Shown here piece after piece: positions 31,808 through 62,037 of a DNA stretch of 64,000 nt. The DNA comes from an uncultured bacterium (GTDB taxonomy: Bacteria; Elusimicrobiota; Elusimicrobia; Elusimicrobiales; Elusimicrobiaceae). The notes below the pieces were generated by a model that saw only the letters and a list, made by a program, of their open reading frames with translations, had not been told where the DNA came from and searched no databases. The stretch spans positions 1-64,000 of the forward strand of contig CASEVJ010000006.1 in NCBI GenBank assembly GCA_949291365.1, given 5' to 3'. The position numbers were made by a program, and so were the translations under genes. Position 1 is the first letter of the stretch. Each line of letters begins with the position of its first letter.

Positions 31808-32182
31808 ATGGATACAAAACTGATTACCGAAATTACCCAGTGGATGAAAACCACGGATTTGGCTGAATTTTGTTACGAGAAAAATCATAATTGCATAGAA
31901 ATCAAAACCCGCGAAGCTTTGCCCGAACCGGCCAAGTTCTCCTGCCATTTAACGGCGGTTACCGCGCCTGCTTTGGGCTTTTATCACGCCGCTCCAAAAG
32001 GTAAAAATTTACCGCTTTCCGAAGGCCAAAAAGTAAAAGAAGGAGACAGCTTGGGCCTGGTGGAAACGCTGTCTAAAAAACATCCCATTACCGCGCCCGT
32101 GGCCGGTACCTTGCGTATTATTTCCGCCGAAGAAGGCAAATCCGTGGAATACGGCCAGCCGCTGTTTTTCATTGAACCGTAG
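31808..32182 (+). CDS. accB: Biotin carboxyl carrier-like protein without the usual biotin lysine
   Basis: This 124-residue protein aligns with the biotin carboxyl carrier protein of acetyl-CoA carboxylase. It has an N-terminal helix MDTKLITEITQWMKTTDL, a short linker, and a biotinyl domain from TAPALGFYH through EGQKVKEGDSLGLVE to the end GQPLFFIEP. The hairpin tip that reads EAMKM in normal BCCPs reads ETLSKK (residues 86-91). In a gap-free alignment Ser89 sits at the biotinylated lysine, with lysines at the next two positions. It is therefore either biotinylated at a shifted lysine or not biotinylated. The gene starts a four-gene operon with accC, 9 bases before it. Calling it accB is by homology and place only. 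Confidence 0.8.
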   Translation: MDTKLITEITQWMKTTDLAEFCYEKNHNCIEIKTREALPEPAKFSCHLTAVTAPALGFYHAAPKGKNLPLSEGQKVKEGDSLGLVETLSKKHPITAPVAGTLRIISAEEGKSVEYGQPLFFIEP

Positions 32183-32191
32183 AGGCCTTCC

Positions 32192-33583
32192 ATGAATGCA
32201 AAAATAAAAGTTACCCCCTTTAAAAAAGTACTTATCGCCAACCGCGGCGAAATTGCTTTGCGCGTCATTCGCACGCTCAAAGAAATGAATATCAAGTCCG
32301 TGGCTGTTTACTCCGAGGCCGACCGTAACAGCTTGCATGTGCGCATGGCTGATGAAGCGGTGTGCATAGGAGCGGCTCCGTCTCCAATGAGCTATTTAAA
32401 TATTGACGCGGTGGTAACCGCCGCCAAGATGACCGGAGCGGACGCCGTGCACCCGGGTTATGGTTTTTTGTCTGAAAATGCCGATTTTGCCGAAGCCGTG
32501 ACCAAAGCCGGCATTACGTTTATCGGCCCTACGGCCCAAGCTATCAGCATGCTGGGCGTAAAGAGCACCGCGCGTGAAATCGCCGTCAAAGGCGGCGTGC
32601 CTATTACCCCGGGTTCTGACGGCGTGGTGGGAAAAGATTTTCGGGAAGTGGCCCGCAAAATCGGTTTCCCAATTATGATTAAGGCCTCTTTGGGCGGCGG
32701 CGGCAAAGGCATGCGCGCCTGCTTGGAAGAGAAAGATTTGGAGCGGATGATGAAAACCGCCCAGGCCGAAGCCAAAGCCAACTTTGGAGACGACCGCGTC
32801 TATTTTGAAAAACTTGTTTTAAACCCGCGCCATATTGAGGTGCAGGTAGCGGCCGACAATTACGGCAACGCCATCGCGTTTGCCGAGCGCGACTGCAGTA
32901 TGCAGCGCCGCCACCAGAAACTGGTGGAAGAATCCCCGTCCCCGTTTGTGGACGAGGCCACCCGCCGCAAATTGCAGGAAGCCGCCGTCAAATTAGTCAA
33001 GGCCGCCAAATACCGCGGTGTAGGCACGGTGGAATTTTTGATGGCGCAGAACAAAGAATTTTATTTTATGGAAGTCAACACGCGTTTGCAGGTGGAACAC
33101 CCGGTAACGGAAGCCGTGTGCGGCTATGACCTGGTCAAAATGCAAATCCGCATTGCCCAGGGCGAACCGCTGTGCATCGGCCAGAAAGAAGCGGCGGTAA
33201 TCCGCTGCCATGCCATTGAGCACCGCATTAACGCCGAAGACAGCGATAAAAACTTTACCCCGTGCCCGGGCACCATTGAAGAGTGGATACCTGCCGGGGG
33301 CTTGGGTGTGCGTGTGGACAGCCACATGTATACGGGATACACCATTCCCAGCTATTATGACAGCTTGATAGCCAAACTGATTTTAACGGCTCCAGACCGC
33401 GAAAAATTGCTGCAGCGCAGCCGCCGTGCCCTAGGGGAATTTAAGGTGGGGGGCGTCAAAACGACCATTCCTTTCCACCAGAAAATTGTCAATAATCCGG
33501 ATTTCGTGGCCGGCAATATGGATACGGGTCTAATTGAACGTATGCTGGAAGCGGAAAAAAAGCAAGATGAAGGCCAAAAGTAA
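32192..33583 (+). CDS. accC: Biotin carboxylase subunit
   Basis: This 463-residue ATP-grasp enzyme uses ATP and bicarbonate to carboxylate biotin. All family motifs are intact: [84 protein letters not shown] (metal and substrate site) and EHRINAED. The C-terminus shows the [10 protein letters not shown] segment. It pairs with the BCCP-like protein immediately upstream. The carboxyltransferase that would complete a carboxylase is not here but at 60433-62037. The start of the adenylyltransferase gene overlaps its last 17 bases. Confidence 0.96.
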
Positions 33584-34031
33584 AATTTTCAGCCGGCCCG
33601 CTTTAGCCAAATGGCTGGATACACAGCGCAAAGCAGGTAAAAAAATCGTTTTTACCAACGGCTGTTTTGATATTCTGCACGCCGGACACGTAAGCGTGCT
33701 GGAGTTTTCGCGCGCACAGGGAGACGTGCTGGTGGTGGGCGTGAACAGCGACGCGTCCGTGCGGCGCTTAAAAGGCCCCACCCGCCCCGTCAATAAACAA
33801 GCCGACCGCGCATTGGTGCTGGCGGCCCTGCAGGCGGTGGACGCCGTGTGCGTATTTGGGGAAGATACCCCGTACAATTTGATTAAACTCGTCCGTCCCG
33901 ACGTGCTGGTAAAAGGCGGCGATTATAAGCCCTCGGAAATCGTGGGCCGTGAATTTGCAAAAAAAGTAGCGCGTTTTGCCCTGTTAAAAGGGCGTTCCAC
34001 TACCAATATTATTAAGAAAGTACAGAAGTAA
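33567..34031 (+). CDS. HldE C-terminal-type cytidylyltransferase-fold heptose-phosphate adenylyltransferase
   Basis: This protein of 154 residues has the nucleotidyltransferase signature [19 protein letters not shown] (HxGH), then [22 protein letters not shown] and VLVKGGDY, and ends with [10 protein letters not shown]. This is the RfaE domain II/HldE C-terminal type that adenylylates heptose-1-phosphate for ADP-heptose, a lipopolysaccharide core precursor. It stands alone without the kinase half that is fused to it in Escherichia coli. A separate PfkB-like kinase at 2169-3077 is not obviously its partner. It overlaps accC and precedes the SPT-like gene by 23 bases, so it is in the carboxylase operon. 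Confidence 0.85.
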
Positions 34032-34054: not shown

Positions 34055-35245
34055 ATGTCCGATATTTTTGAAAAGTGCAAAAATTATAAAGATGCCAAAC
34101 TGGCCATGAAGCTGGGCATTTACGGCTATTTCCAGCCGATAGAATCTGCCCAGGGGCCGGAAGTCATACTGGGAGGGAAAAAATATATTATGGCCGGCTC
34201 CAATAACTATTTGGGCCTGGCTGACGACCCGGAGATGAAAAAAGCCGCCGCTGATGCCGCTTTGAAGTACGGCACCGGCTGTGCAGGTTCCCGCTTTTTA
34301 AACGGCAATACCGTTTTTCACGACCAGTTGGAGCAGCGCCTTGCACGTTTTAAACGCAAAGAAGCCGGCCTTCTCTTTTCCACCGGCTACCAGATGAATT
34401 TGGGTGTGGTGTCCTGCCTGATTAAAAAAGGTGATTACGCCATCGTGGATAAACTAGACCATGCCAGCATTTTGGACGGGGTCAAGCTCTCCGACGGGGA
34501 AATGGTGCGCTTTAAACACAATGACCCGGAAGATTTGGAGCGGGTGCTTTCTAAACTGCCGCCGGAGGCGGGCAAGCTGATTATTGTAGACGGCGTATTT
34601 AGCATGGAAGGCGATATCTGCCCGCTGCCCGACATTGTCAAAGCAGCCAAGAAATACGGCGCGCGCATTATTGTAGACGATGCCCACGCCACCGGCATTA
34701 TTGGCAAAACCGGGCGCGGAACCTGCGAATATTTTGGGCTGGAAAACGGTGAAGTGGATCTCGTAGTGGGCACCTGCTCTAAAACGTTTGCCACCGTGGG
34801 TGGCTTTGTGGTGGGGGATGCTGACATTATCCATTATATCCGCCACAATGCGCGCAGCCAGATTTTCTCCGCCGCGCTGCCGCCGGCCTCTGTGGCTTCC
34901 ATTAATAAGGCGCTGGAGCTGATTGAAAATGACACCTCCCGCCGCGACAATTTGTTCCGCATGACCGATAACCTTAAAAAAGGCCTGCGCGATCTGGGCT
35001 TTGACTTGGGCCACAGCACCACGCCGGTTATCCCGGTGCATGTGGGCAGCAATGAAAACTGCTTTAAGATGTGGCGCGCCCTGCATGAGCTGGGCATTTT
35101 CTCCAACCCGGTTGTCAGCCCCGCTGTGCCCCCGGGCCGCGCTTTAATGCGCCTGACGCTGATGGCTACGCATACCGATGAACATGTACAAAAAATCATT
35201 GACGCGTTTGCCCAAGCGGGCCGGGCCGTAGGTGTGATTAAATAA
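34055..35245 (+). CDS. Serine palmitoyltransferase-like alpha-oxoamine synthase
   Basis: This 396-residue PLP enzyme condenses an amino acid with an acyl thioester, losing CO2. It belongs to the fold shared by SPT, BioF and Kbl. Features closest to bacterial SPT are SNNYLGL, FSTGYQMNLG, KLDHASILDG (stacking His136), VDDAHATG and the PLP lysine Lys243 in GTCSKTFATVGGFVVG. SPT of Sphingomonas, recalled from memory, has GTFSKSxGTVGGFVV and ends QAAGRAVGVIG, matching the end here QAGRAVGVIK. The first step of sphingolipid synthesis (serine plus acyl-CoA or acyl-ACP to 3-ketosphinganine) is therefore the favoured function. BioF is an alternative, but no biotin genes are near. A strong ribosome site precedes it and a terminator follows. 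Confidence 0.8.
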   Translation: MSDIFEKCKNYKDAKLAMKLGIYGYFQPIESAQGPEVILGGKKYIMAGSNNYLGLADDPEMKKAAADAALKYGTGCAGSRFLNGNTVFHDQLEQRLARFKRKEAGLLFSTGYQMNLGVVSCLIKKGDYAIVDKLDHASILDGVKLSDGEMVRFKHNDPEDLERVLSKLPPEAGKLIIVDGVFSMEGDICPLPDIVKAAKKYGARIIVDDAHATGIIGKTGRGTCEYFGLENGEVDLVVGTCSKTFATVGGFVVGDADIIHYIRHNARSQIFSAALPPASVASINKALELIENDTSRRDNLFRMTDNLKKGLRDLGFDLGHSTTPVIPVHVGSNENCFKMWRALHELGIFSNPVVSPAVPPGRALMRLTLMATHTDEHVQKIIDAFAQAGRAVGVIK

Positions 35246-50080: not shown

Positions 50081-53000
50081 ATGAACAATAAAACCAAAGA
50101 GCCCATTGCCATTGTCGGCATCGGCGCCATTATGCCCGGATCTTTAAATAAAGACGAGTTCTGGCAAAACATTCAAACTGGTAAATATTGCATCACCGAA
50201 ATTCCCCAATCTTATTGGGATTATAAACTTTTCTACAGCCCGGACCATAAAGCCGAAGATAAACTTTATTCCAAAATTGGCGGCTTTATTCCCGCTGGAT
50301 TTAAATTTAATTCTATTAAGTACCGCATTCCTCCCCAAATCGCCAAGCAGATGGATACCGTGCAGCACCTAGCTATTGAAACCACCCGCATGGCTTTGGA
50401 AGACAGCGGATATGACAAAAAAGAATTTGACCGTAACCGCTGTGCGGTAATTGTAGGCAATTCTATGGGCGGCATGAAAAACGAGATGTCCAACACGCGT
50501 TTGAACCGCCCGTTTTTATATGAAATTTTGAAAGAAACCCCTACCTATAAATCGCTTTCTCCGGACGCCGAACAGAAACTGATGGACGAAATGGACGAAG
50601 GCGTCCGCCAGAGATTTACCCCTATTACTGAGGACTCCATGCCCGGCGAACTGGCTAACGTTATTGCCGGCCGCTTGGCTAACGTCTTTGACATACACGG
50701 TACCAACTTTACCGTAGACGCTGCGTGCGCCACCTCTTTGGCGGCGGTGGATCAAGCCGTCAACGGCTTGCGCGAAGGAAACTTTGATATGGCTATTGTG
50801 GGCGGTGTAGACCAGATGATGTCGCCTTCTGCCTATATTAAGTTCTGCAAAATCGGCGCTTTGTCTGAAAAGGGTTCTTGCCCCTTTGACGCCAAGGCCG
50901 ACGGCTTTGTCATGGCCGAAGGCGCCGGTACGGTCATTTTGAAACGTTTGTCTGACGCGGTTAAAGACGGAGACAAAATTTACGCCGTTATCCGCGCTAT
51001 TGGTGCATCTTCCGACGGAAAAGGCAAAGGCATTACCGCCCCCAATCCCAAAGGACAAAAGATTGCCGTAGAAAAGGCCTTTGAACAGGTGGACTATACG
51101 CCGGGCGATGTGGGCCTGGTGGAAGCGCACGGCACCAGCACCCGCGTGGGTGACGCTGTGGAGCTGAACGCTTTGTATGAAATTTTTGCCCCGTATGCCA
51201 AGCCCGGTACCATTGGTCTGGGCAGCGTCAAAAGCCAAATCGGTCACGCCAAGGCCGCGGCGGGTATTGCCTCTTTAATTAAGACCTCTTTGGCCTTATA
51301 TAATAAGGTATTGCCTCCTTCTGTCAATTTTGAAACTCCGAACCCGACGGTGAACTGGGCTACCAGCCCCTTCCGCGTCATTACCAAGCTGGAGCCGTGG
51401 AACACCGACAAAGTGCGCCGCGCCAACGTGTCCGCCTTCGGCTTTGGCGGCACCAACTTCCATGTAGCTATGGAAGAGATGAATGACGGCCTGCTTAAAA
51501 AGACGGAGGAAAACAAAGTCTGCGCCGCCGCAATTTCAAATCCTACCCCCGCAGTAGAGGAGAAACAAGAAATGAATGCCAGTGAGTATACGCTGCTTGT
51601 CCCGGGCGAAAAAATCCAAAGCGATGTGCTGACCTTCTCGGCAGACACCAAGCAGGATTTGTTCAGCGAATTGGGCAAAGCCATTTTAGCTATTAAATAT
51701 GACCCTACCTATCTGCCCAGCATCTCTTACAAAAACCACATTCAGAAGCCGCGCAAATTTGCGGTGTCTATTAATGTGGAAAATCCGGAAAAGCTGAAAG
51801 AAAAAATTGAGTATTTTATTAAAATCGCCGGTGGGCAGGATGTGTGGACGCAGGAATCTTTGTATTTAAAGATGAAAGGTATCTATCCGTTCACTCCGAC
51901 GGAAATTAAACCCAAAGTATGCTTCATGTTCCCGGGGCAGGGCTCCCAATATGTGGACATGATGAAAGATTTGGCTTCCAAATATAAAATAGTCAAAGAT
52001 ACTTTTGATGAAGCCGACCGCCTGCTGATTAAAATTATCGGACAAAACTTGACCGATACCTTGTGGAGTAAACCCGGCGAAACCAAAGAACAAATCGCCG
52101 CGCGCGAAGCCGCCATTAAGAAAACGGAAATGACCCAGCCGGCGATGCTCACGGCAGATATTGCCATGATGCGTCTGCTTTCTTCATTTGGTTTAAAACC
52201 CGATGTAGTGATGGGCCACAGCTTGGGCGAGTATGCCGCTGCGGTGGCTGCTGGTATTTTTGATTTTGAAAACGGGCTCAAGGCCGTCTGCACCCGCGGC
52301 AAAGTGATGTCTGAAATACGCGTGGAAGACAACGGCAAAATGGCCTCTATCGCCGCTACGGCTGAAGCGGTGGAGCCGGAGCTCAAACGCATCAATGGGT
52401 ATGTGGCAGTAGCCAACAAAAACTGCCCGACGCAAACCGTTATTGCCGGTGCGTCCAAATCCGTAGACGACGCTATTAAAATGTTTACCGATATGGGCAT
52501 TCAGGCGGTGCAAATCCCGGTGTCTCACGCGTTTCACTCTGAAATCGTGCGCCCGGCTATGCCGCAGTACCGCGCATTCTTGGATACCTTGACGTTCCAC
52601 GCGCCTACTATGCCTATTACCACCAACGTGACGGCGGAATTTTATCCTAATGACCCCGAGAAAATCAAAGACCTCATGGTCACGCAGATTTCCCACTCGG
52701 TGGAATGGATGAAACAGCTTAAAACCACCTATGATTCCGGTGTGCGCTTGTTTGTGGAATGCGGCCCCAAACGGGTGCTTTCTGCATTAGCAGCCAGCAC
52801 GCTTTCTGACAAGAAAGACATTAAAGTACTGGCCTCCAACCACCCCAAAAAGGGCGGTATTGTGGAATTTAACGATTTGTTTGCCAACCTGATTTCTTCC
52901 GGCATTTACATTGACTGGAAAGGCACCGATATTTACGGCGATAATTCCACCTATAACCCTGCGTTTGTAAAATGGGTGGACGCCACCGCCACGCCGACTG

Positions 53001-56000
53001 AAAAATGTGAGGGAAATATGCCTGCCACTATGGAAGAACAGCTGCAAGCGGGCCAGGAATGCTGCGCACGCAAAAATGTGGTCATCAGCGGTATTGCCGC
53101 CGGCGGCCCGGGCAGCTGGGACAAAGTATTCCGCGAAGGGGTGCTGGACGAAATTTTGCAGGGGCGCAATTTAATTGAGCCCGTCAGCTCCGACTGCCAG
53201 CAAAAACAAATTGACAAGAATGTGGAAATCGTCATTAAATCCAAAGACGGCAACCACCGTATTGAACATTTGGCTTCTGTTTCCCAGGCCATTAAGCTGG
53301 CCGCCAAAGCAGGGAGCTTTGACTTGGAAAAAGAGTTTGGCCTGCCTGCCAAATGGGTGGCTTCTATGGACAAAGCTTTCCAGCTGGCTATTGCGGCGGG
53401 TATCTTGGCTTTGAAAGACGCCGGCATTCCGCTGGTGCTCTACTATAAACCCACCTCTACCGGCGGCTACTTGCCCGACCGCTGGGGCCTGCCGGAAGAG
53501 ATGATTGACAATACGGGCGTCATTTTCACTTCTGCCTATCCTATTACCAACAGCATGATGGGGGAATTTGCCCAAAAGCTGACGGCCCTGCTGGAAAATA
53601 AAAACGCGAAAGAATTAACTAAATTCTACGAAACGTTTATCAACCAGATTTCCGACCCGGCTTTAAAAGCCGAACTGAAAGCGTGGTACGACGCAGAAAT
53701 GGCCAAAGTGCCAGCTTTGCAGTCGTTTACCTCCCAGTTTATTTTAAAGACCATTATTATTGCCCAGTCCCACTTTGCACAGTGGATCCGCGCCAAAGGC
53801 CCCGCCACCTCTATGAGTGCGGCGTGCGCTTCTACGGCGCAGGCCATTTCCGTGGCGCATGACTGGATCCGCCTGGGCCGGGCCAAACGCGTCATCGTCA
53901 TCAGCGCAGACGATATTACCAACGACTCTATCGCCGAGTGGATGCTGACGGCATTCTTGGCCTCCGGCGCCGCTACGACAGAGGGCGATGTGACCAAAGC
54001 CGCCCTGCCTTTTGACCGCCGCCGCAACGGTATGATTGTGGGTATGGGGGCTGTGTCTTTGGTGGTAGAAGAACAGAGTGAAGTGGAAAAACGCGGCATG
54101 AAACCGCTGGCCAAGCTCTTGGCTACCGAAATCCGCAACAGTGGCTTCCACGTGACCCGCTTGGATGTCAACCATGTGGCCCAAGTGATGAATGAGCTGG
54201 TATCCACGGCGGAAAAAGATTTCGGTTTGAACCGCTCTGATATTGCTAAACAACTGGTATTTATCTCGCACGAAACTTATACGCCTGCACGCGGCGGTTC
54301 CGCCAGTGCCGAAGCGTATGCGCTTAAATCCACCTTTGGCAAAGACGTCAGCTCCGTCATCGTCAGCAATACCAAGGGCTTTACCGGCCATTCTATGGGC
54401 GCCGGCTTGGAAGACGCTATTGCCGTGCGCTGCTTAAACACCGGTATCGTACCCCCGATTGCCAATTTCAAAGAAGCCGATCCTGAATTGGAAGGCATTA
54501 CCTTAAGCAAAGGCGGCCATTATGACTTTAAGTATGCGCTTCGCCTGGCGGCGGGTTTTGGCTCCCAGATTGGCATGACGCTATTGGAAAGAATGTGGAC
54601 AGAAGGCGAGCCCCGCATTTATGACAATGCCAAACATGAAGCGTGGCTGAGACAAATTTCTAACCAAGAAAACCCGGTGCTGGAAATTGACCACAACACC
54701 TTGCGTGTGAAAGACAACTATAAACACGGGGTGAAACCTTCCTTAATTATGGAAGGAGCGCAAGCTTTTGTGGACAAAGCCAGCATGATGCACAGCCACA
54801 CCGCGCCGAAAGCGGCAGCTGCCCCTGTGGCGGTTCCCGCCGCGGTAACCCCGGCGGCAACTCCTGCTCCGGCGGCTGTGCCTGCTTCTGCCCCGGCTCC
54901 TGCGGCCCAACCTGCCGCTGCGCCGAAAGCGGCTCTGCCGAACTTGGACGAAGCGTCCGTAACCAAAGACATTTTGGCTATCGTATCTGAGAAGACCGGC
55001 TACCCCGAAGATATGCTGGACTTAGATTTGGATATGGAAGCGGACCTGGGTATTGACACCGTCAAACAGGCCGAGTTGTTTGCCATTATGCGTGAGAAGT
55101 ATCAGATTGCGCGCCAAGAGGGCGTACAGCTCAAAGATTATCCGACCATTCGCTCCATTATTAAATACGCCATGAACAATGCTGGCAGTGAAGGTGCGGC
55201 TTCTGCGGCCCCGGCTGCTGTGGCTCCTGCCGCGGTAACCCCGGCGGCTCAACCTGCTCCGGCGGCTGTGCCTGCTTCTGCCCCGGCTCCTGCGGCCCAA
55301 CCTGCCGCTGCGCCGAAAGCGGCTCTGCCGAGCTTGGACGAAACAGCGGTAACCAAAGACATTTTGGCGATTGTAGCCGAAAAGACCGGCTACCCTGAGG
55401 ATATGCTGGACTTGGACTTGGATATGGAAGCCGATTTGGGTATTGATACCGTCAAACAGGCCGAATTGTTTGCCATTATGCGCGAGAAATACCAAATCGC
55501 GCGTCAGGAAGGCGTACAGCTTAAAGATTATCCGACGATTCGCTCCATTATTAAATATGCTATGGCCAATGCCGGCAGCGAAACGGGTGCGGCTTCTGCG
55601 GCTCAATCTGCCGCTGCGCCGGTAACCCCGGCAACCACACCTGCCCCGGCTCCTGCCGCCCAACCTGTTGCGGCTCCGAAAGCAGCTCTGCCGAGCTTGG
55701 ACGAAGCGGCTGTCACCAAAGACATTTTAGCGATTGTGGCGGAGAAAACGGGATACCCCGAGGACATGCTGGACTTGGATTTGGATATGGAAGCGGACTT
55801 GGGTATTGACACGGTCAAACAGGCCGAACTGTTCGCTATTATGCGCGAGAAGTATCAGATTGCGCGCCAAGAGGGCGTACAGCTCAAAGATTATCCGACC
55901 ATTCGCTCCATTATTAAATACGCCATGAGCAATGCCGGCAGCGAAGGTGCGGCTTCTGCGGCCCCGGCTGCTGTGGCTCCTGCCGCGGTAACCCCGACCG

Positions 56001-59000
56001 CCGCGACTGTCCAACCGGCAGTTGCTCCTGCTCCGGCGGTGGCGCCTGCAGCCCAACCTGCTGTAGCGGCTCAGCCTGCCGCTGCCCCGGCAAAAGCAGC
56101 CGGCCCGATGCCGAGCTTAGACGAAGCTGCGGTAACCAAAGACATTTTAGCGATTGTGGCGGAGAAAACGGGATACCCCGAAGATATGCTGGACTTGGAT
56201 TTGGATATGGAAGCGGACTTGGGCATTGACACCGTCAAACAGGCCGAGTTGTTTGCCATTATGCGTGAGAAATACCAGATTGCGCGCCAAGAGGGCGTAC
56301 AGCTTAAGGATTATCCGACCATTCGCTCCATTATTAAATATGCTATGACCAATGCCGGCACCGAAGGTGCGGCGGCTCCTGCCGCGGCAACCCCGGCTCC
56401 TGTGGCTCATCCTGCCCCGGCGGTAACTCCTGCGGCCCAACCCGCTCCAGCGCCTGTGGCTCAGCATGCTGCGGCTCCTGCCGCTGCGCCGAAAGCAGCC
56501 GGCCCGATGCCGAGCTTAGACGAAGCGTCCGTAACTAAAGATATTAAAGCCATTGTAGCGGAAAAGACCGGCTACCCCGAGGATATGCTGGACCTGGACT
56601 TGGATATGGAAGCGGACTTGGGTATTGACACCGTCAAACAGGCCGAACTGTTTGCCGTCATGCGCGAGAAGTACCAGATTGCGCGCCAGGAAGGCGTACA
56701 GCTCAAAGATTATCCGACCATTCGCTCTATCATTCAATATGCTATGGCTAATGCCGGCACCGAAGGTGCGGCGGCTCCTGCCGCGGTAACCCCGGCCCCG
56801 GCTCCTGTGGCTCAGCCTGCCCCGGCGGTAACTCCGGCTCCGGCGCCTGCAGCTCAGCCTGTTCCCGCTGCGGCGGTTCAACCTGCCCCGGTTCCTGTGG
56901 CCCAGCCGCAAGAGCCGCAGCTGCCCACCATTCAGGTAGCTACGGTGCAGGAAGCGGTGCCGACGGCGGAAAAGGTGGAGAAACCTTCTGAAGAAATGTT
57001 GACCACCAACCCGACCGAGCCGATTAAACCGCACGTTTCTTTGGCGGAACGCCCGGAGCGTGAGGGCTACGCCGGAGAACATTGCCACGAGAAGAAACTG
57101 CGCAATGTAACCGTGGTGGCGCAGGCCCCGCTGACAGAGCGCGAAAACCGCCGTTTGTCCAAAGACCGCACGGTGCTGATTTTTGCCGATAACTCCCAAC
57201 TGATTAAGGCCTATCAGGAAGAGTTCAAAGAATTGGGCGTAAAGACTCACGTGTTCACCACACTCAAGACCCGCAGCAAAAATACCACAATTGTGAACTG
57301 GGAATCGTACGAAGAAACCGAAGCCGCGCTCAAAGAGTACGCCGCAGAAGATCCCAACATTCAGGGTATTGTGTATTTGCTGGGAGCCACCGTCAAGAAA
57401 TTTGACAAGAAAGCCAGCCCGCACAATGAACTGACCAAATACGTTATGCCGTTGTTTATTGCCTTGCGCGTATTTGAAAAAGGATTGTCCAACCGTACCG
57501 ACGCCGATACGTTCTTTGCAGTCAACACGAAGATTGATGGTAACTTCGGTTACACGACCAAAGATGAGTTTAACCCCATCTCCGGCGCGCTGACCGGCGG
57601 CGTTACCTGCTACCGCAAAGACGTCTATGAACGCACCGGCGCGATTAGCAAGCTCATTGACTTTGAGCCCACCACCACGCCAGACGAAATGGCCCGCTAC
57701 ACCATGGAAGAAGTACTCCACGGCGATATGCGCCTGATGATTGGCGCGCGGGAAGGCGGACGCAGCACTATCTTGTCCGTCCCGGTGCGCTTGGACAGAA
57801 GCGAAAAACGCTTTGACCTGGCCGGCAAGACCATTATCTTTACCGGTTCGGGCCGCGGCATTGGCGCGATGCTCAGCCAGAAAATTGCGGCGCAGTACCA
57901 CAGCAAGATTATCGTCTTGGATATCATTGAAATCCAGGAAAAGACTCCGCTGTGGGCGTCCATGAACGAAGCCGAACTGGCGGCGCTTAAGAAACAAATC
58001 TGGGAAGACCTCAAAGCCGACAAGACGCAAAAGGCCACCCCGGTCATATTGGAGCGCGCTTTCGGCCGCGTGAAAGACTCTATCACGCTTTACAACAACT
58101 TGCAGAAATTGCGCGACCTGGGTAGCGAAGTGGAATACTACCACTGCGACGTGATGAACAGCTCCATGGTCAAAGAAGTCTGCACGAAAATCAAAGCCAA
58201 AAACGGCCGCGTGGACGGGTTAATCCACTTTGCCGGATTGGAACGCTCCAAGCTGATTTACGACAAAGACCCCGCGGAATATTACCGCATCTTTGACGTA
58301 AAAGCCACCAGCTTTGCCAGCTTCTTGGCTAACAATATCGTGCGTGACGACGGCTTCTTCGCTTTTGCCTCTTCCATTGCCGGTAAATACGGCAACCTGG
58401 GCCAGAGCGATTATGCCTCCGCCAACGACTATTTGGCCAAATCGGCTTTCTCGCTGACCAACCAGGGCTACCGTGCCATTTCTATCGCGATGAGCGCCTA
58501 TAAGAATGTGGGTATGGGCGTGCGCGCCGGCGTGGAAACGTTTCTTAAATCCAACGGCGTAGACTTTGTAGACCCCGAAGACGGTATGCAGATATTCTTG
58601 GACGAAATCGTGTACGGCGACGTGCCCGAAATCGTGCTGACCGGCTCTTTGGGCCGCCTGGACTGGGATCACCAGCACCGCTTTGAGATGGACGAAATTG
58701 TCCCCACGGGCGCGCAAAACGCGCCCAAAGGAGGCAATGGCTCTCACGGAAACGGCGGCTCCTCTTCTGCCGCGCCCAAAGCGGCGGAAGCACCTTTGCC
58801 TGATCCGGTGCAGGCCAACCACTTTTTAGCCAACGTGTCCTCTCTGGAAAAAGGCAAAGAAATTCATGCCGAAAAAGAATTTAACTTGGAGTCAGACCCA
58901 TATCTGGCCGACCACGCTATTGAAGGCACCCCCTATGTGCCGGGCGTGATGGGCATTGAAACGTTTATGGAAACCGCCACCGCTTTGGGCGGACGCGTGC

Positions 59001-59665
59001 CGCAGGGCTTAAAGGACGTGCATTTTTACCTGCCTATTAAACTCTTGCGCAACCGCCCGCAGGCCGTGCGCGTAATCGGCACGGAAGTCAACGGCGATAT
59101 TTCCATGGAAATTGAGTCCGACTTTATCAACAGCAAAGGCGTAAAAATGGGCAACACCCGCCGCCATTTTACGGCGCACGCTATGCAGGACGGCTTTGTG
59201 TCCACCTGGAATGAAGTGAAAGACCAAATCCAGTTAGACCCCAACGCCGCACCGCAAATTACCAAAGAAGAAATCTATAAAAAGTATTTCCACGGGCCGA
59301 GCTTTCAGGTGCTGGGCGGCATTTTAAGAGCCGATAAAGACAGCTCTTTAGCCATTTATAACACCACCCCGCAGCCGCAGTGGAAAGACGGCGAAAAAGT
59401 ACTGCTGGCTAACCCGATGCTCATTGAAGCGGCCTTCCAGTGCTGCGGTTTTCGGGATATGGCCATTGACAACAAGATGACCTTGCCCGACGGCATAAAA
59501 GAAGTAGCCGTATTTAAACGCCAGACCCCGCCGCAGAAGCTGTATCTCTACGGACGGTTTAAAGGCTTGACCGCCGACGGAAAAACATTGCACGACGCCT
59601 ATGTGTTTGATCAAAACGGCGACGTGTGGGTGGAATTCCACGGATATCAGGCCATTGGCCAATAA
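50081..59665 (+). CDS. PfaA-like iterative polyketide/lipid synthase, KS-AT-KS-(ACP)5-KR-DH
   Basis: This giant enzyme of 3194 residues assembles an acyl chain from malonyl-type units. Ketosynthase 1 (about 1-470) has Cys216 in DAACATS, His350 in EAHGTST and His389 in GHAKAAAG. The acyltransferase (about 613-930) has GQGSQY and Ser714 in GHSLGEY. Ketosynthase 2 (about 995-1510) has Cys1249 in SAACAST, His1397 in SHETYTPARGG and His1437 in GHSMGAG. Five ACPs (about 1619-2225) follow, each with Thr at the phosphopantetheine position (1660, 1790, 1911, 2051, 2184). The ketoreductase (core 2582-2860) has GSGRGIG and Tyr2778. The dehydratase (about 2900-3190) has His2945 in DHAIEGTPYVPG. No enoyl reductase or thioesterase is present. 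PfaA of PUFA synthases has the same order without the second KS. The product is unknown. Confidence 0.9.
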   Translation: MNNKTKEPIAIVGIGAIMPGSLNKDEFWQNIQTGKYCITEIPQSYWDYKLFYSPDHKAEDKLYSKIGGFIPAGFKFNSIKYRIPPQIAKQMDTVQHLAIETTRMALEDSGYDKKEFDRNRCAVIVGNSMGGMKNEMSNTRLNRPFLYEILKETPTYKSLSPDAEQKLMDEMDEGVRQRFTPITEDSMPGELANVIAGRLANVFDIHGTNFTVDAACATSLAAVDQAVNGLREGNFDMAIVGGVDQMMSPSAYIKFCKIGALSEKGSCPFDAKADGFVMAEGAGTVILKRLSDAVKDGDKIYAVIRAIGASSDGKGKGITAPNPKGQKIAVEKAFEQVDYTPGDVGLVEAHGTSTRVGDAVELNALYEIFAPYAKPGTIGLGSVKSQIGHAKAAAGIASLIKTSLALYNKVLPPSVNFETPNPTVNWATSPFRVITKLEPWNTDKVRRANVSAFGFGGTNFHVAMEEMNDGLLKKTEENKVCAAAISNPTPAVEEKQEMNASEYTLLVPGEKIQSDVLTFSADTKQDLFSELGKAILAIKYDPTYLPSISYKNHIQKPRKFAVSINVENPEKLKEKIEYFIKIAGGQDVWTQESLYLKMKGIYPFTPTEIKPKVCFMFPGQGSQYVDMMKDLASKYKIVKDTFDEADRLLIKIIGQNLTDTLWSKPGETKEQIAAREAAIKKTEMTQPAMLTADIAMMRLLSSFGLKPDVVMGHSLGEYAAAVAAGIFDFENGLKAVCTRGKVMSEIRVEDNGKMASIAATAEAVEPELKRINGYVAVANKNCPTQTVIAGASKSVDDAIKMFTDMGIQAVQIPVSHAFHSEIVRPAMPQYRAFLDTLTFHAPTMPITTNVTAEFYPNDPEKIKDLMVTQISHSVEWMKQLKTTYDSGVRLFVECGPKRVLSALAASTLSDKKDIKVLASNHPKKGGIVEFNDLFANLISSGIYIDWKGTDIYGDNSTYNPAFVKWVDATATPTEKCEGNMPATMEEQLQAGQECCARKNVVISGIAAGGPGSWDKVFREGVLDEILQGRNLIEPVSSDCQQKQIDKNVEIVIKSKDGNHRIEHLASVSQAIKLAAKAGSFDLEKEFGLPAKWVASMDKAFQLAIAAGILALKDAGIPLVLYYKPTSTGGYLPDRWGLPEEMIDNTGVIFTSAYPITNSMMGEFAQKLTALLENKNAKELTKFYETFINQISDPALKAELKAWYDAEMAKVPALQSFTSQFILKTIIIAQSHFAQWIRAKGPATSMSAACASTAQAISVAHDWIRLGRAKRVIVISADDITNDSIAEWMLTAFLASGAATTEGDVTKAALPFDRRRNGMIVGMGAVSLVVEEQSEVEKRGMKPLAKLLATEIRNSGFHVTRLDVNHVAQVMNELVSTAEKDFGLNRSDIAKQLVFISHETYTPARGGSASAEAYALKSTFGKDVSSVIVSNTKGFTGHSMGAGLEDAIAVRCLNTGIVPPIANFKEADPELEGITLSKGGHYDFKYALRLAAGFGSQIGMTLLERMWTEGEPRIYDNAKHEAWLRQISNQENPVLEIDHNTLRVKDNYKHGVKPSLIMEGAQAFVDKASMMHSHTAPKAAAAPVAVPAAVTPAATPAPAAVPASAPAPAAQPAAAPKAALPNLDEASVTKDILAIVSEKTGYPEDMLDLDLDMEADLGIDTVKQAELFAIMREKYQIARQEGVQLKDYPTIRSIIKYAMNNAGSEGAASAAPAAVAPAAVTPAAQPAPAAVPASAPAPAAQPAAAPKAALPSLDETAVTKDILAIVAEKTGYPEDMLDLDLDMEADLGIDTVKQAELFAIMREKYQIARQEGVQLKDYPTIRSIIKYAMANAGSETGAASAAQSAAAPVTPATTPAPAPAAQPVAAPKAALPSLDEAAVTKDILAIVAEKTGYPEDMLDLDLDMEADLGIDTVKQAELFAIMREKYQIARQEGVQLKDYPTIRSIIKYAMSNAGSEGAASAAPAAVAPAAVTPTAATVQPAVAPAPAVAPAAQPAVAAQPAAAPAKAAGPMPSLDEAAVTKDILAIVAEKTGYPEDMLDLDLDMEADLGIDTVKQAELFAIMREKYQIARQEGVQLKDYPTIRSIIKYAMTNAGTEGAAAPAAATPAPVAHPAPAVTPAAQPAPAPVAQHAAAPAAAPKAAGPMPSLDEASVTKDIKAIVAEKTGYPEDMLDLDLDMEADLGIDTVKQAELFAVMREKYQIARQEGVQLKDYPTIRSIIQYAMANAGTEGAAAPAAVTPAPAPVAQPAPAVTPAPAPAAQPVPAAAVQPAPVPVAQPQEPQLPTIQVATVQEAVPTAEKVEKPSEEMLTTNPTEPIKPHVSLAERPEREGYAGEHCHEKKLRNVTVVAQAPLTERENRRLSKDRTVLIFADNSQLIKAYQEEFKELGVKTHVFTTLKTRSKNTTIVNWESYEETEAALKEYAAEDPNIQGIVYLLGATVKKFDKKASPHNELTKYVMPLFIALRVFEKGLSNRTDADTFFAVNTKIDGNFGYTTKDEFNPISGALTGGVTCYRKDVYERTGAISKLIDFEPTTTPDEMARYTMEEVLHGDMRLMIGAREGGRSTILSVPVRLDRSEKRFDLAGKTIIFTGSGRGIGAMLSQKIAAQYHSKIIVLDIIEIQEKTPLWASMNEAELAALKKQIWEDLKADKTQKATPVILERAFGRVKDSITLYNNLQKLRDLGSEVEYYHCDVMNSSMVKEVCTKIKAKNGRVDGLIHFAGLERSKLIYDKDPAEYYRIFDVKATSFASFLANNIVRDDGFFAFASSIAGKYGNLGQSDYASANDYLAKSAFSLTNQGYRAISIAMSAYKNVGMGVRAGVETFLKSNGVDFVDPEDGMQIFLDEIVYGDVPEIVLTGSLGRLDWDHQHRFEMDEIVPTGAQNAPKGGNGSHGNGGSSSAAPKAAEAPLPDPVQANHFLANVSSLEKGKEIHAEKEFNLESDPYLADHAIEGTPYVPGVMGIETFMETATALGGRVPQGLKDVHFYLPIKLLRNRPQAVRVIGTEVNGDISMEIESDFINSKGVKMGNTRRHFTAHAMQDGFVSTWNEVKDQIQLDPNAAPQITKEEIYKKYFHGPSFQVLGGILRADKDSSLAIYNTTPQPQWKDGEKVLLANPMLIEAAFQCCGFRDMAIDNKMTLPDGIKEVAVFKRQTPPQKLYLYGRFKGLTADGKTLHDAYVFDQNGDVWVEFHGYQAIGQ
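54935..56757 (+). repeat. Five tandem ACP-coding repeats with Ala/Pro linkers
   Basis: Five copies of an ACP-coding unit of about 250 bases are spaced 121-140 codons apart (Thr codons at 55058, 55448, 55811, 56231 and 56630). The copies differ mainly by synonymous changes, and copies 3 and 4 are nearly identical at DNA level over their first half. The linkers are Ala/Pro-rich and vary in length. Confidence 0.95.
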
Positions 59666-60417
59666 TGCAGTACAAAACGCAGTTTATAAAAATTAAAGAC
59701 CTGCCCCCGGCAGACTCTTTTCTCTCTTCCAGCGAAAGCGCCTACTTGCAAACGCTTCGCTCCGATAAGCGAAAAGGGGACTGGCTCGGGGGCCGGTTTG
59801 CGTTAAAGACGCTTTTGGCGCGCGAAAGCGGCCTGTTGCCGGTGTGCAGTTTGCCGCCGGCGCGCCCGCAAACGCCGGACGCGGCGCAGGCAGAAGGGGG
59901 AGTGCCCCTCTCTGAAATGTCTGCGGCGGCGCTGGCGGTGCTTAAGCAGATTGATATTGTAAAACTGCCCAGCGGCGCGCCGCAGGTGTTTGTTGGCTCC
60001 GTGCCCGACGCGCGCAGCGTGAGCATTACCCATTCGGGCCCATGGGCGGCGGCGGCGGTGTCTGCGCCGCATACGTTTTTAGGCATAGATTTGGAAAAAA
60101 TAGAAAAAAGAAGCCGCGCCTGGGCCGAAGAATTTTTTGACCCGTCCGAAAAAGGCCCCGCCACAGAGGCGCATTTAACAAAAGTGTGGACGCAAAAAGA
60201 AGCGGTGGTAAAGCTATTGGGGAGGGGGCTTTCGCTTAATACGCGCGAGATTGTGCTGGACAATGAGCGCCTGCGGCTGACGGGGCGTGCCCTGCAGGCG
60301 TGGCAGCAGGCGGCAGAGCCGCAAATTATACTTAACTCGGTTCCGTTTGACAATGATTTTATATTTACCGTGGCCTTTGCGCCCGCCGCCGCAGGCGCGA
60401 AGTTTGGTAAAATGTAG
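59665..60417 (+). CDS. Sfp-type 4'-phosphopantetheinyl transferase
   Basis: This 250-residue enzyme transfers phosphopantetheine from CoA to a carrier protein. The Sfp-type signatures are FLGIDLEKIEKRS and VWTQKEAVVKLLGRGLSL, with WTxKEAxxK intact. SITHSG is the upstream motif. Its ATG overlaps the stop codon of the synthase (TAATG at 59663-59667), so both are translated from one message at linked rates. The obvious client is the five-ACP array. If it acts there, it must modify threonine, which is unusual. No other PPTase is visible in this window. Confidence 0.93.
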   Translation: MQYKTQFIKIKDLPPADSFLSSSESAYLQTLRSDKRKGDWLGGRFALKTLLARESGLLPVCSLPPARPQTPDAAQAEGGVPLSEMSAAALAVLKQIDIVKLPSGAPQVFVGSVPDARSVSITHSGPWAAAAVSAPHTFLGIDLEKIEKRSRAWAEEFFDPSEKGPATEAHLTKVWTQKEAVVKLLGRGLSLNTREIVLDNERLRLTGRALQAWQQAAEPQIILNSVPFDNDFIFTVAFAPAAAGAKFGKM

Positions 60418-60432
60418 CTTTAGGGAGGGCAA

Positions 60433-62037
60433 ATGATAGAACTTTTTGATAATCCCAGAGAAGATAAAAAATCCGACCGGCCGGCTCCGAAAAGCTTGGT
60501 CAAATTCCGTCAGATTTATCAGGACGCCATGGCCGGTGCCGGAGAAGAAAAAAATAAAGCCCAGAAGGCCAAAGGCAAGTTTACGGCCCGGGAGCGGCTT
60601 TCTTATTTATTGGATAAAGACAGCTTTTTTGAAATTAAAAGTTTGGTAGAGAGCAACTGCCACGACTTTGGCGTAGCCGAAAAACACATCAAAGGCGACG
60701 GCGTTATTACCGGCTTTGGCCGCATTAACGGCCGCCCGGTGGCTATCTTTGCGCAGGACTTTACACAGCTGGGCGGTTCTTTGGGGTTGGCCCACGCCAA
60801 AAAAATTGCCGATATTATGGATAAAGCGCTGGAAGCCAAAATCCCGGTCATCGGGCTTTTGGACAGCGGCGGCGCGCGCATTCAGGAAGGGGTGGGCAGC
60901 TTGGACGGTTATGGAGAGATTTTCTACCGCAACGTCAAAGCGTCCGGCGTCATTCCGCAGATTTCCGTCATTTTGGGCCCCTGTGCCGGCGGTGCGGTGT
61001 ATTCCCCGGCGCTGACGGACTTTATTTTTATGGTGGAAGGCATCAGCCACATGTTTGTAACGGGGCCGAGCGTGGTAAAAGCGGCTACCGGCGAAGAAGT
61101 GGATTTTGATACCCTTGGCGGCAGCCAGCCGCACAGCGAAAAAAGCGGCGTGTGCCAGTTTGTGGCGAAATCGGAGCAGGACTGCTTCCGTCAGGTGCGC
61201 GAATTGTTGAGCTTCCTGCCGCAAAACAACCAGGAAAAGGCCCCTACTGAAACGACCACCGACACTACCGACCGGCCCGTGCATGTGCTGGAGCGCGTGT
61301 GCGAAATGGACCCCAAAAAGGCGTTCCGTATTCACCACGTCATTTGGCGCTTGGCGGACAATTATGAGTTCTTTGAAATTCACCAAAACTTTGCCAAAAA
61401 CGTGGTAACCGGCTTTGTCCGCATGGGCGGGCAGGTGGTGGGGGTAATTGCCAATAACCCGGCCCATTTGGGCGGTGCGCTGGATTGCGACGCCAGCGAC
61501 AAGGCGGCGCGGTTTATCCGCTTTTTAAATGCATTTAATATCCCCATTTTGACGTTGGTGGACATTGGCGGCTATCTGCCCGGCGTACAGCAAGAGCACG
61601 GCGGCATTATTCGCCACGGTGCCAAGCTGCTTTATGCCTATGCAGAAGCCACGGTGCCTAAAGTCACGCTGGTACTGCGCAAAGCGTACGGCGGGGCGTA
61701 TATTGCGATGGGCTCTAAATATTTGCGCGGGGATTTTAATTTTGCCTTCCCCAGCGCTGAAATTGCTGTTATGGGCCCGCGCGGCGCGGTGGAAATCTTG
61801 TATTCCAAAGATTTGAAAAAAGAGACTGACGAGCAGAAAAAAGAAGCCATGAAGGAGAAGCTGACGCAGGAATATTCCGACAAGTTTGCCTCTCCCTATC
61901 AAACGGCAATGAACGGCTCCATTGATGAAATCATAGAGCCGTCCGAAGCGCGCAGCAAAATTATCGGTGCGCTGCGTATCTTAAAAAACAAACGGGATCC
62001 CAAAGCCCACCACAATACGGGTAATATCCCACTGTAA
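60433..62037 (+). CDS. Acyl-CoA carboxylase carboxyltransferase (PccB/MmdA-like)
   Basis: This 534-residue biotin-dependent carboxyltransferase moves CO2 from carboxybiotin to acetyl- or propionyl-CoA. It contains both crotonase-like halves in one chain: KFTARERLSYLLD, LLDSGGARIQEGVGSLDGYG, ILGPCAGGAVYSPALTDF, IANNPAHLGGALDCDASDKAARFI, VDIGGYLPGVQQEHGGIIRHGAKLLYAY and RKAYGGAYIAMGSK. The usual DVPGFLPG reads DIGGYLPG. It is single-chain, unlike AccA plus AccD of Escherichia coli. It starts 15 bases after the PPTase gene with GGGAGG ahead, so it is part of the synthase operon and probably supplies malonyl-CoA or methylmalonyl-CoA. The matching biotin carboxylase is at 32192-33583. Confidence 0.95.
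   Translation: MIELFDNPREDKKSDRPAPKSLVKFRQIYQDAMAGAGEEKNKAQKAKGKFTARERLSYLLDKDSFFEIKSLVESNCHDFGVAEKHIKGDGVITGFGRINGRPVAIFAQDFTQLGGSLGLAHAKKIADIMDKALEAKIPVIGLLDSGGARIQEGVGSLDGYGEIFYRNVKASGVIPQISVILGPCAGGAVYSPALTDFIFMVEGISHMFVTGPSVVKAATGEEVDFDTLGGSQPHSEKSGVCQFVAKSEQDCFRQVRELLSFLPQNNQEKAPTETTTDTTDRPVHVLERVCEMDPKKAFRIHHVIWRLADNYEFFEIHQNFAKNVVTGFVRMGGQVVGVIANNPAHLGGALDCDASDKAARFIRFLNAFNIPILTLVDIGGYLPGVQQEHGGIIRHGAKLLYAYAEATVPKVTLVLRKAYGGAYIAMGSKYLRGDFNFAFPSAEIAVMGPRGAVEILYSKDLKKETDEQKKEAMKEKLTQEYSDKFASPYQTAMNGSIDEIIEPSEARSKIIGALRILKNKRDPKAHHNTGNIPL

What the first reader, a model, noticed from the sequence alone, without database searches (positions are those of the whole stretch)
31808..32182. 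Biotin carboxyl carrier protein without the biotinylated lysine
Seen: in a gap-free alignment to BCCP, the EAMKM hairpin reads ETLSKK, placing Ser89 at the biotin position and lysines one and two positions on. The rest of the domain, including EGQKVKEGD and the C-terminal strand, is conserved. It is encoded 9 bases before accC. Known: biotin ligase is strict about the lysine position in the hairpin. Inference: shifted biotinylation with a co-adapted ligase, or a non-biotinylated helper with the true carrier elsewhere.
Basis: partly seen in the sequence, partly recalled or inferred. Interest (0 to 1): 0.72.

Follow-up and report, generated by a model that had tools for sequence, protein, structure and literature searches.

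The report
Biotin-free BCCP twin beside accC
In gut Elusimicrobiota bacteria, the gene beside the biotin carboxylase gene makes a conserved look-alike of the biotin carrier protein that has lost the biotin attachment site, while the true carrier is encoded elsewhere; it is probably a structural or regulatory part of the enzyme that starts fatty-acid synthesis, something so far described mainly in plants (BADC proteins).

Summary
ORF 31808-32182 encodes a 124-aa BCCP-like protein with Ser89 at the biotin position, nine bases before accC. It is not an error: 35 of 36 searched genomes of the genus and all 24 of a second family have the orthologue. Median dN/dS is 0.075, and the hairpin is the least constrained segment. 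No Lys is conserved: position 89 is S/A/G/T/F in 63 distinct genus sequences, and Lys sits only at 90, only at 91, or at both. Shifted biotinylation is therefore unlikely. The same genome has a canonical AccB (EAMKV) on another contig, one AccC, one PccB-type carboxyltransferase, one intact biotin ligase and one ligase with decayed motifs. In sampled genomes across the phylum there is an orphan canonical BCCP ("A", always EAMK) and an accC-linked paralogue ("B"). B kept EAMK in many lineages, changed K to R or Q six times, and lost the whole motif once at the base of a large clade of class Elusimicrobia, where the flexible linker also shortened (about 36 to 16 residues). Best explanation: B is a noncatalytic subunit that binds AccC, working like plant BADC proteins. 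Binding, stoichiometry and any effect on activity are inferred. Interest 0.6; a new variant of a known kind.

The parts
31808..32182 (+). B: BCCP-like protein without a biotin-attachment lysine, 124 aa
31814..31906 (+). N-terminal region: predicted helix (residues 3-15) and beta-hairpin (20-33), the most conserved segment; counterpart of the N-terminal beta-hairpin that joins biotin carboxylase dimers in Chloroflexus BC1
   Evidence: AF2 model; pN/pS 0.099; alignment; PMC11077971
32063..32083 (+). degenerate hairpin E86-T-L-S89-K-K-H92 in place of EAMKM; Ser89 codon at 32072-32074
32192..33583 (+). accC, biotin carboxylase, the only one found in the genome
   Evidence: TIGR00514 652 bits; active-site motifs present
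33534..34031 (+). nucleotidyltransferase (RfaE2-like), follows accC also in relatives
34055..35245 (+). PLP-dependent acyltransferase (Kbl/AONS-like), follows in relatives too
60433..62037 (+). PccB/MmdA-type carboxyltransferase, the only CT found in the genome (no AccA/AccD)

Best explanation
The gene encodes a noncatalytic paralogue of the biotin carboxyl carrier protein (here called B). It works like plant BADC proteins: its N-terminal helix and beta-hairpin and its biotinyl-fold domain bind biotin carboxylase (AccC), and probably the true AccB, to build or tune the carboxylase complex. It carries no biotin itself. The CO2 carrier is the separate canonical AccB (A), which partners AccC and the PccB-type carboxyltransferase. 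Shown by sequence: loss of the attachment lysine, conservation under purifying selection, linkage to accC, a complete canonical AccB in the same genomes, retained fold and N-terminal element, shortened linker. Inferred: binding to AccC, hetero-assembly with A, and whether the effect is assembly or inhibition.
For: Orthologue in 59 of 60 relatives. In exceptions followed up, accC itself is missing, at or near a contig edge, or B is present but partly masked. B lies next to or in the same gene string as accC in the loci read. Canonical AccB with EAMK in 35/35 A-type rows and in all 20 genus genomes checked. dN/dS median 0.075 over 54 usable pairs; hairpin pN/pS 0.36 against 0.10 (N-terminus) and 0.11 (C-terminus). 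A/B is a single split on the tree (A with E. coli AccB 99/90). Among B, the motif is lost 7 times by parsimony, six of these by a single K-to-R or K-to-Q change. Median linker: A 36, motif-bearing B 30, degenerate B 16 residues. Fold as 1BDO. In Chloroflexus BC1 the BCCP N-terminal beta-hairpin, not the biotinyl core, makes the BC tetramer and supports activity (PMC11077971). Plant BADCs lack the AMKL motif and assemble BC-BCCP (PMC11926652).
Against: No binding or activity data. The N-terminal match to E. coli AccB is weak by score (4.8 bits), although in exact register. All genus members keep at least one Lys at 90 or 91, so a basic residue there may matter. In family f2 Lys often stands at the biotin column (EVGKD), so modification there is not strictly excluded. 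B of Endomicrobia and others keeps EAMK and may still be biotinylated, so the non-carrier role need not be phylum-wide.
Confidence: 0.66

Rival explanations
1. Inhibitory decoy: B competes with holo-AccB for AccC and lowers carboxylase activity, the older model for plant BADC.
For: Same sequence facts; BADC inhibition models cited in PMC11926652. accC-proximal B would be made in step with AccC while A is encoded elsewhere.
Against: The N-terminal assembly region is the most conserved part and the linker is shortened, which suits a fixed structural place; the NMR paper argues against simple inhibition for plants.
Confidence: 0.15
2. Autoregulator: B senses AccC/AccB levels and controls the accC operon, as reported for E. 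coli AccB (own knowledge).
For: First gene of the accC string; N-terminus conserved.
Against: No DNA-binding element seen; the biotinyl-like core would not need such conservation.
Confidence: 0.07
3. Shifted biotinylation: Lys90 or Lys91 is biotinylated by a co-adapted ligase.
For: Every genus member has Lys at 90 or 91 or both; two ligase genes in the genome.
Against: Lys only at 90 in some, only at 91 in others; hairpin is the least constrained segment; second ligase lost GRGRxGR and KWPND in the window species. Ligases do not tolerate a one-place shift (own knowledge).
Confidence: 0.04
4. Carrier of something else, such as lipoate.
For: Biotinyl and lipoyl domains share a fold.
Against: No Lys in the hairpin apex is conserved; a separate GcvH exists.
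Confidence: 0.03
5. Pseudogene, assembly or sequencing artefact.
For: Hairpin degenerate; genomes are mostly metagenome-assembled.
Against: Open frame of near-constant length in all orthologues read; dN/dS 0.075.
Confidence: 0.01

Closest known systems
Plant BADC proteins (BADC1-3 of the plastid heteromeric acetyl-CoA carboxylase)
   Same: BCCP-derived, lack the biotinylation motif, coexist with true BCCPs and one BC; BADCs bind BC and BCCP and act as glue or inhibitor (PMC11926652)
   Different: Bacterial; the gene sits next to accC; its B relatives in other classes of the phylum still carry EAMK, so the loss happened within this phylum, apparently independently of plants; no biochemical test yet; direct sequence comparison with BADC not made here
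Bacterial AccB/BCCP (E. coli, TIGR00531)
   Same: Fold, thumb region of similar length, N-terminal helix and hairpin register, accB-accC gene order
   Different: No attachment lysine, no EAMKM, linker less than half as long, score below the family cut-off, true AccB encoded elsewhere
Chloroflexus aurantiacus BC1 (fused BC-BCCP)
   Same: BCCP N-terminal beta-hairpin as an assembly element for BC (PMC11077971)
   Different: There the BCCP core is biotinylated and fused to BC
AccE/epsilon subunits of actinobacterial acyl-CoA carboxylases
   Same: Small noncatalytic subunit that helps assembly (mentioned in PMC11926652 and PMC3199775)
   Different: Not BCCP-derived (own knowledge; not tested here)

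Membership tests
AccB/BCCP (biotin carboxyl carrier protein) | Biotinyl-domain fold | tested here: met
   AF2 and Foldseek: 1BDO, 4HR7 at rmsd 1.4-1.6
AccB/BCCP (biotin carboxyl carrier protein) | Attachment lysine in E-A-M-K-M/V hairpin | tested here: not met
   Ser89; 0 of 63 distinct genus sequences have Lys there
AccB/BCCP (biotin carboxyl carrier protein) | Score above the TIGR00531 equivalog cut-off | tested here: not met
   50.3 bits against 115.2; note the genome's canonical AccB also falls just short, 109.7
AccB/BCCP (biotin carboxyl carrier protein) | Long flexible Ala/Pro linker before the core | tested here: not met
   median 16 residues against 36 in A type
BADC-type noncatalytic subunit | BCCP homologue without biotinylation motif, alongside a true BCCP | tested here: met
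BADC-type noncatalytic subunit | Binds BC and BCCP, alters assembly or activity | not testable with these tools
   needs co-purification and assay
BADC-type noncatalytic subunit | Common descent with plant BADC | not tested
   no BADC sequence was in hand; the B relatives with intact EAMK in this phylum point to independent loss
Lipoyl domain | Conserved Lys in the hairpin (DKA) | tested here: not met
   no conserved hairpin Lys

The most novel reading that the evidence does not exclude
A bacterial phylum split its biotin carrier in two: the accC-linked BCCP repeatedly gave up biotin and became a fixed, noncatalytic BC-binding subunit, while an unlinked copy became the sole carrier. This is an evolution of BADC-type subunits apparently independent of plants, with intermediates (EAMK, EAMR, EAMQ, fully degenerate) still alive.
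Probability: 0.55. Interest if true: 0.72.

Novelty: new variant of a known kind. Interest (0 to 1): 0.6.

Why it matters
A 2025 paper calls noncatalytic BADC subunits unique to the plant enzyme (PMC11926652), and whether BADC assembles or inhibits the carboxylase is disputed. A bacterial counterpart, with a graded series of losses of the biotin lysine in one phylum and at least one probable cultured species, would let the role of a biotin-free BCCP be tested by reconstitution, and would show that acetyl-CoA carboxylase gained such subunits more than once. It also warns that the accB-like gene next to accC in these genomes should not be annotated as the biotin carrier.

Tried and rejected
Shifted biotinylation: rejected because Lys moves between 90 and 91 and the hairpin is the most variable part. 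Sequencing error or pseudogene: rejected by conservation and dN/dS. Absence in some genomes: of 14 genomes with weak, cut-off or no B match, most lack a recognisable accC altogether; where a true accC is held it is at or near a contig edge (G062, G071, G187, G171) or has a partly masked B upstream (G061). A first A/B label was wrong because of an alignment gap; the counts quoted come. The N-terminal 41 residues alone found no PDB relative. A fused B-AccC model was considered and not run: only summary confidence would come back, not interface geometry. Presence of similar proteins in other phyla was not tested; the one named-genome scan returned records titled as Elusimicrobia/Elusimicrobiota or only as uncultured bacteria.

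Full report
What is there. The ORF at 31808-32182 (+) encodes 124 residues ending nine bases before accC. Residues 50-122 match Biotin_lipoyl (PF00364, E=1e-11), and the best equivalog is BCCP, but at 50 bits against a cut-off of 115. The hairpin reads E86-T-L-S89-K-K-H, with Ser89 on the biotinyl lysine of E. coli AccB and of the genome's own AccB. AlphaFold2 gives a helix (3-15), a beta-hairpin (20-33) and a biotinyl-domain core; the core superposes on 1BDO at 1.4 A over 76 columns.

The genome. It is 1.39 Mb, 93% complete. Its nearest named relatives are records of Elusimicrobiales, including Candidatus Avelusimicrobium. It holds four biotin/lipoyl places: an OadA-like protein with EAMKM, a canonical AccB with EAMKV on contig C5, GcvH, and the finding. 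There is one AccC. No AccA or AccD was found, and the only carboxyltransferase is a PccB/MmdA-type protein at window 60433-62037. AccC aligns end to end with solved biotin carboxylases and keeps the motifs of the active site. There are two biotin ligases: one with intact GRGR and KWPND motifs, and a shorter one in which these read GRDREGK and TSAGD.

Conservation. The orthologue is in 59 of 60 relatives. In 63 distinct genus-level sequences position 89 is S (53), A (4), G (3), T (2) or F (1), never K. Lys occurs at 90 in 41 and at 91 in 54; no sequence lacks both, but many have only one. Pairwise dN/dS among 12 genus members has a median of 0.075; pN/pS is 0.10 for residues 1-34, 0.36 for the hairpin and 0.11 for the C-terminus. 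So the protein is kept, and the former attachment site is the part that drifts. The order-level family f2 mostly reads EVGKD, with R, G, N and loss of the Glu as alternatives.

Phylum view. A profile search matched 335 of 341 genomes of the phylum (some of these matches are the canonical AccB), and representatives were read in detail. The pattern is two BCCP-like proteins: A, unlinked, EAMK in all 35 rows including E. coli; and B, linked to accC. On a tree built without the hairpin columns, A and B form a single split, with E. coli AccB on the A side (99/90; short alignment, moderate support). B kept E-x-M-K in Endomicrobia-like and several other families, shows EAMR/ETMR/VAMR or EAMQ in six rows from different families, and lost the whole motif once, in the clade with the window genus. 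The linker before the core has a median of 36 residues in A, 30 in motif-bearing B and 16 in degenerate B, as expected if the domain no longer has to swing between two active sites. One genome of another family (G061) has an EF-P-like gene, then B, then accC, an order known to me from canonical bacterial accBC loci; so B may hold the original place of accB, which is inference.

How it most likely works. In Chloroflexus BC1 the N-terminal beta-hairpin of the BCCP part, and not its biotinyl core, joins carboxylase dimers into a tetramer and supports activity (PMC11077971). Plant BADC proteins are BCCP relatives without the biotinylation motif that bind BC and BCCP; they are described as unique to plants, with a disputed role as glue or inhibitor (PMC11926652). 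B keeps the N-terminal element and the fold but not the cargo site. I therefore propose a noncatalytic AccC-binding subunit, with A as the only carrier. Shown: sequence loss, selection, linkage, presence of A. Inferred: binding, stoichiometry, effect on activity.

What it is not. It cannot be filed as an AccB, because the defining lysine, the linker and the family score are not met. It works like a BADC, but membership by descent was not tested; intact-motif B proteins in the same phylum point to an independent origin.

Limits. Most genomes are metagenome-assembled; the domain is short, so deep branches are uncertain; other phyla were not surveyed; no interaction data exist. One single-contig genome of the same family (G102, 1,643,562 bases) has the size I remember for Elusimicrobium minutum; its B reads ETSAKKI, so a cultured test organism is probably available.

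Noticed in passing
window 50081-62037: A 3194-aa PfaA-like megasynthase (KS, AT, five ACPs, KR, DH) followed by a phosphopantetheinyl transferase and the genome's only carboxyltransferase. Its KS domains are the only ketoacyl-synthase matches in the genome, so type II fatty-acid synthesis appears to be missing.
   Followed up: partly
L078:1453-2028 (G000:C8 near 113238-113810): Second biotin-ligase paralogue whose catalytic motifs are decayed in the window species and several others of the genus but intact in others, with the reading frame kept: repeated loss of catalysis.
   Followed up: partly
L035:3273-4970 (-) and equivalents in family f2: A protein of roughly 540 aa with a double zinc ribbon and a probable membrane segment stands between B and accC in family f2 but not in the window genus.
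   Followed up: no
B loci L207, L215, L216, L221, L238, L202: accC-linked BCCPs with otherwise good motifs but Arg or Gln in place of the biotin lysine, in six lineages.
   Followed up: yes
L001: OadA-like protein with its own EAMKM next to an OadB-like membrane subunit, with an intact biotin ligase close by.
   Followed up: no
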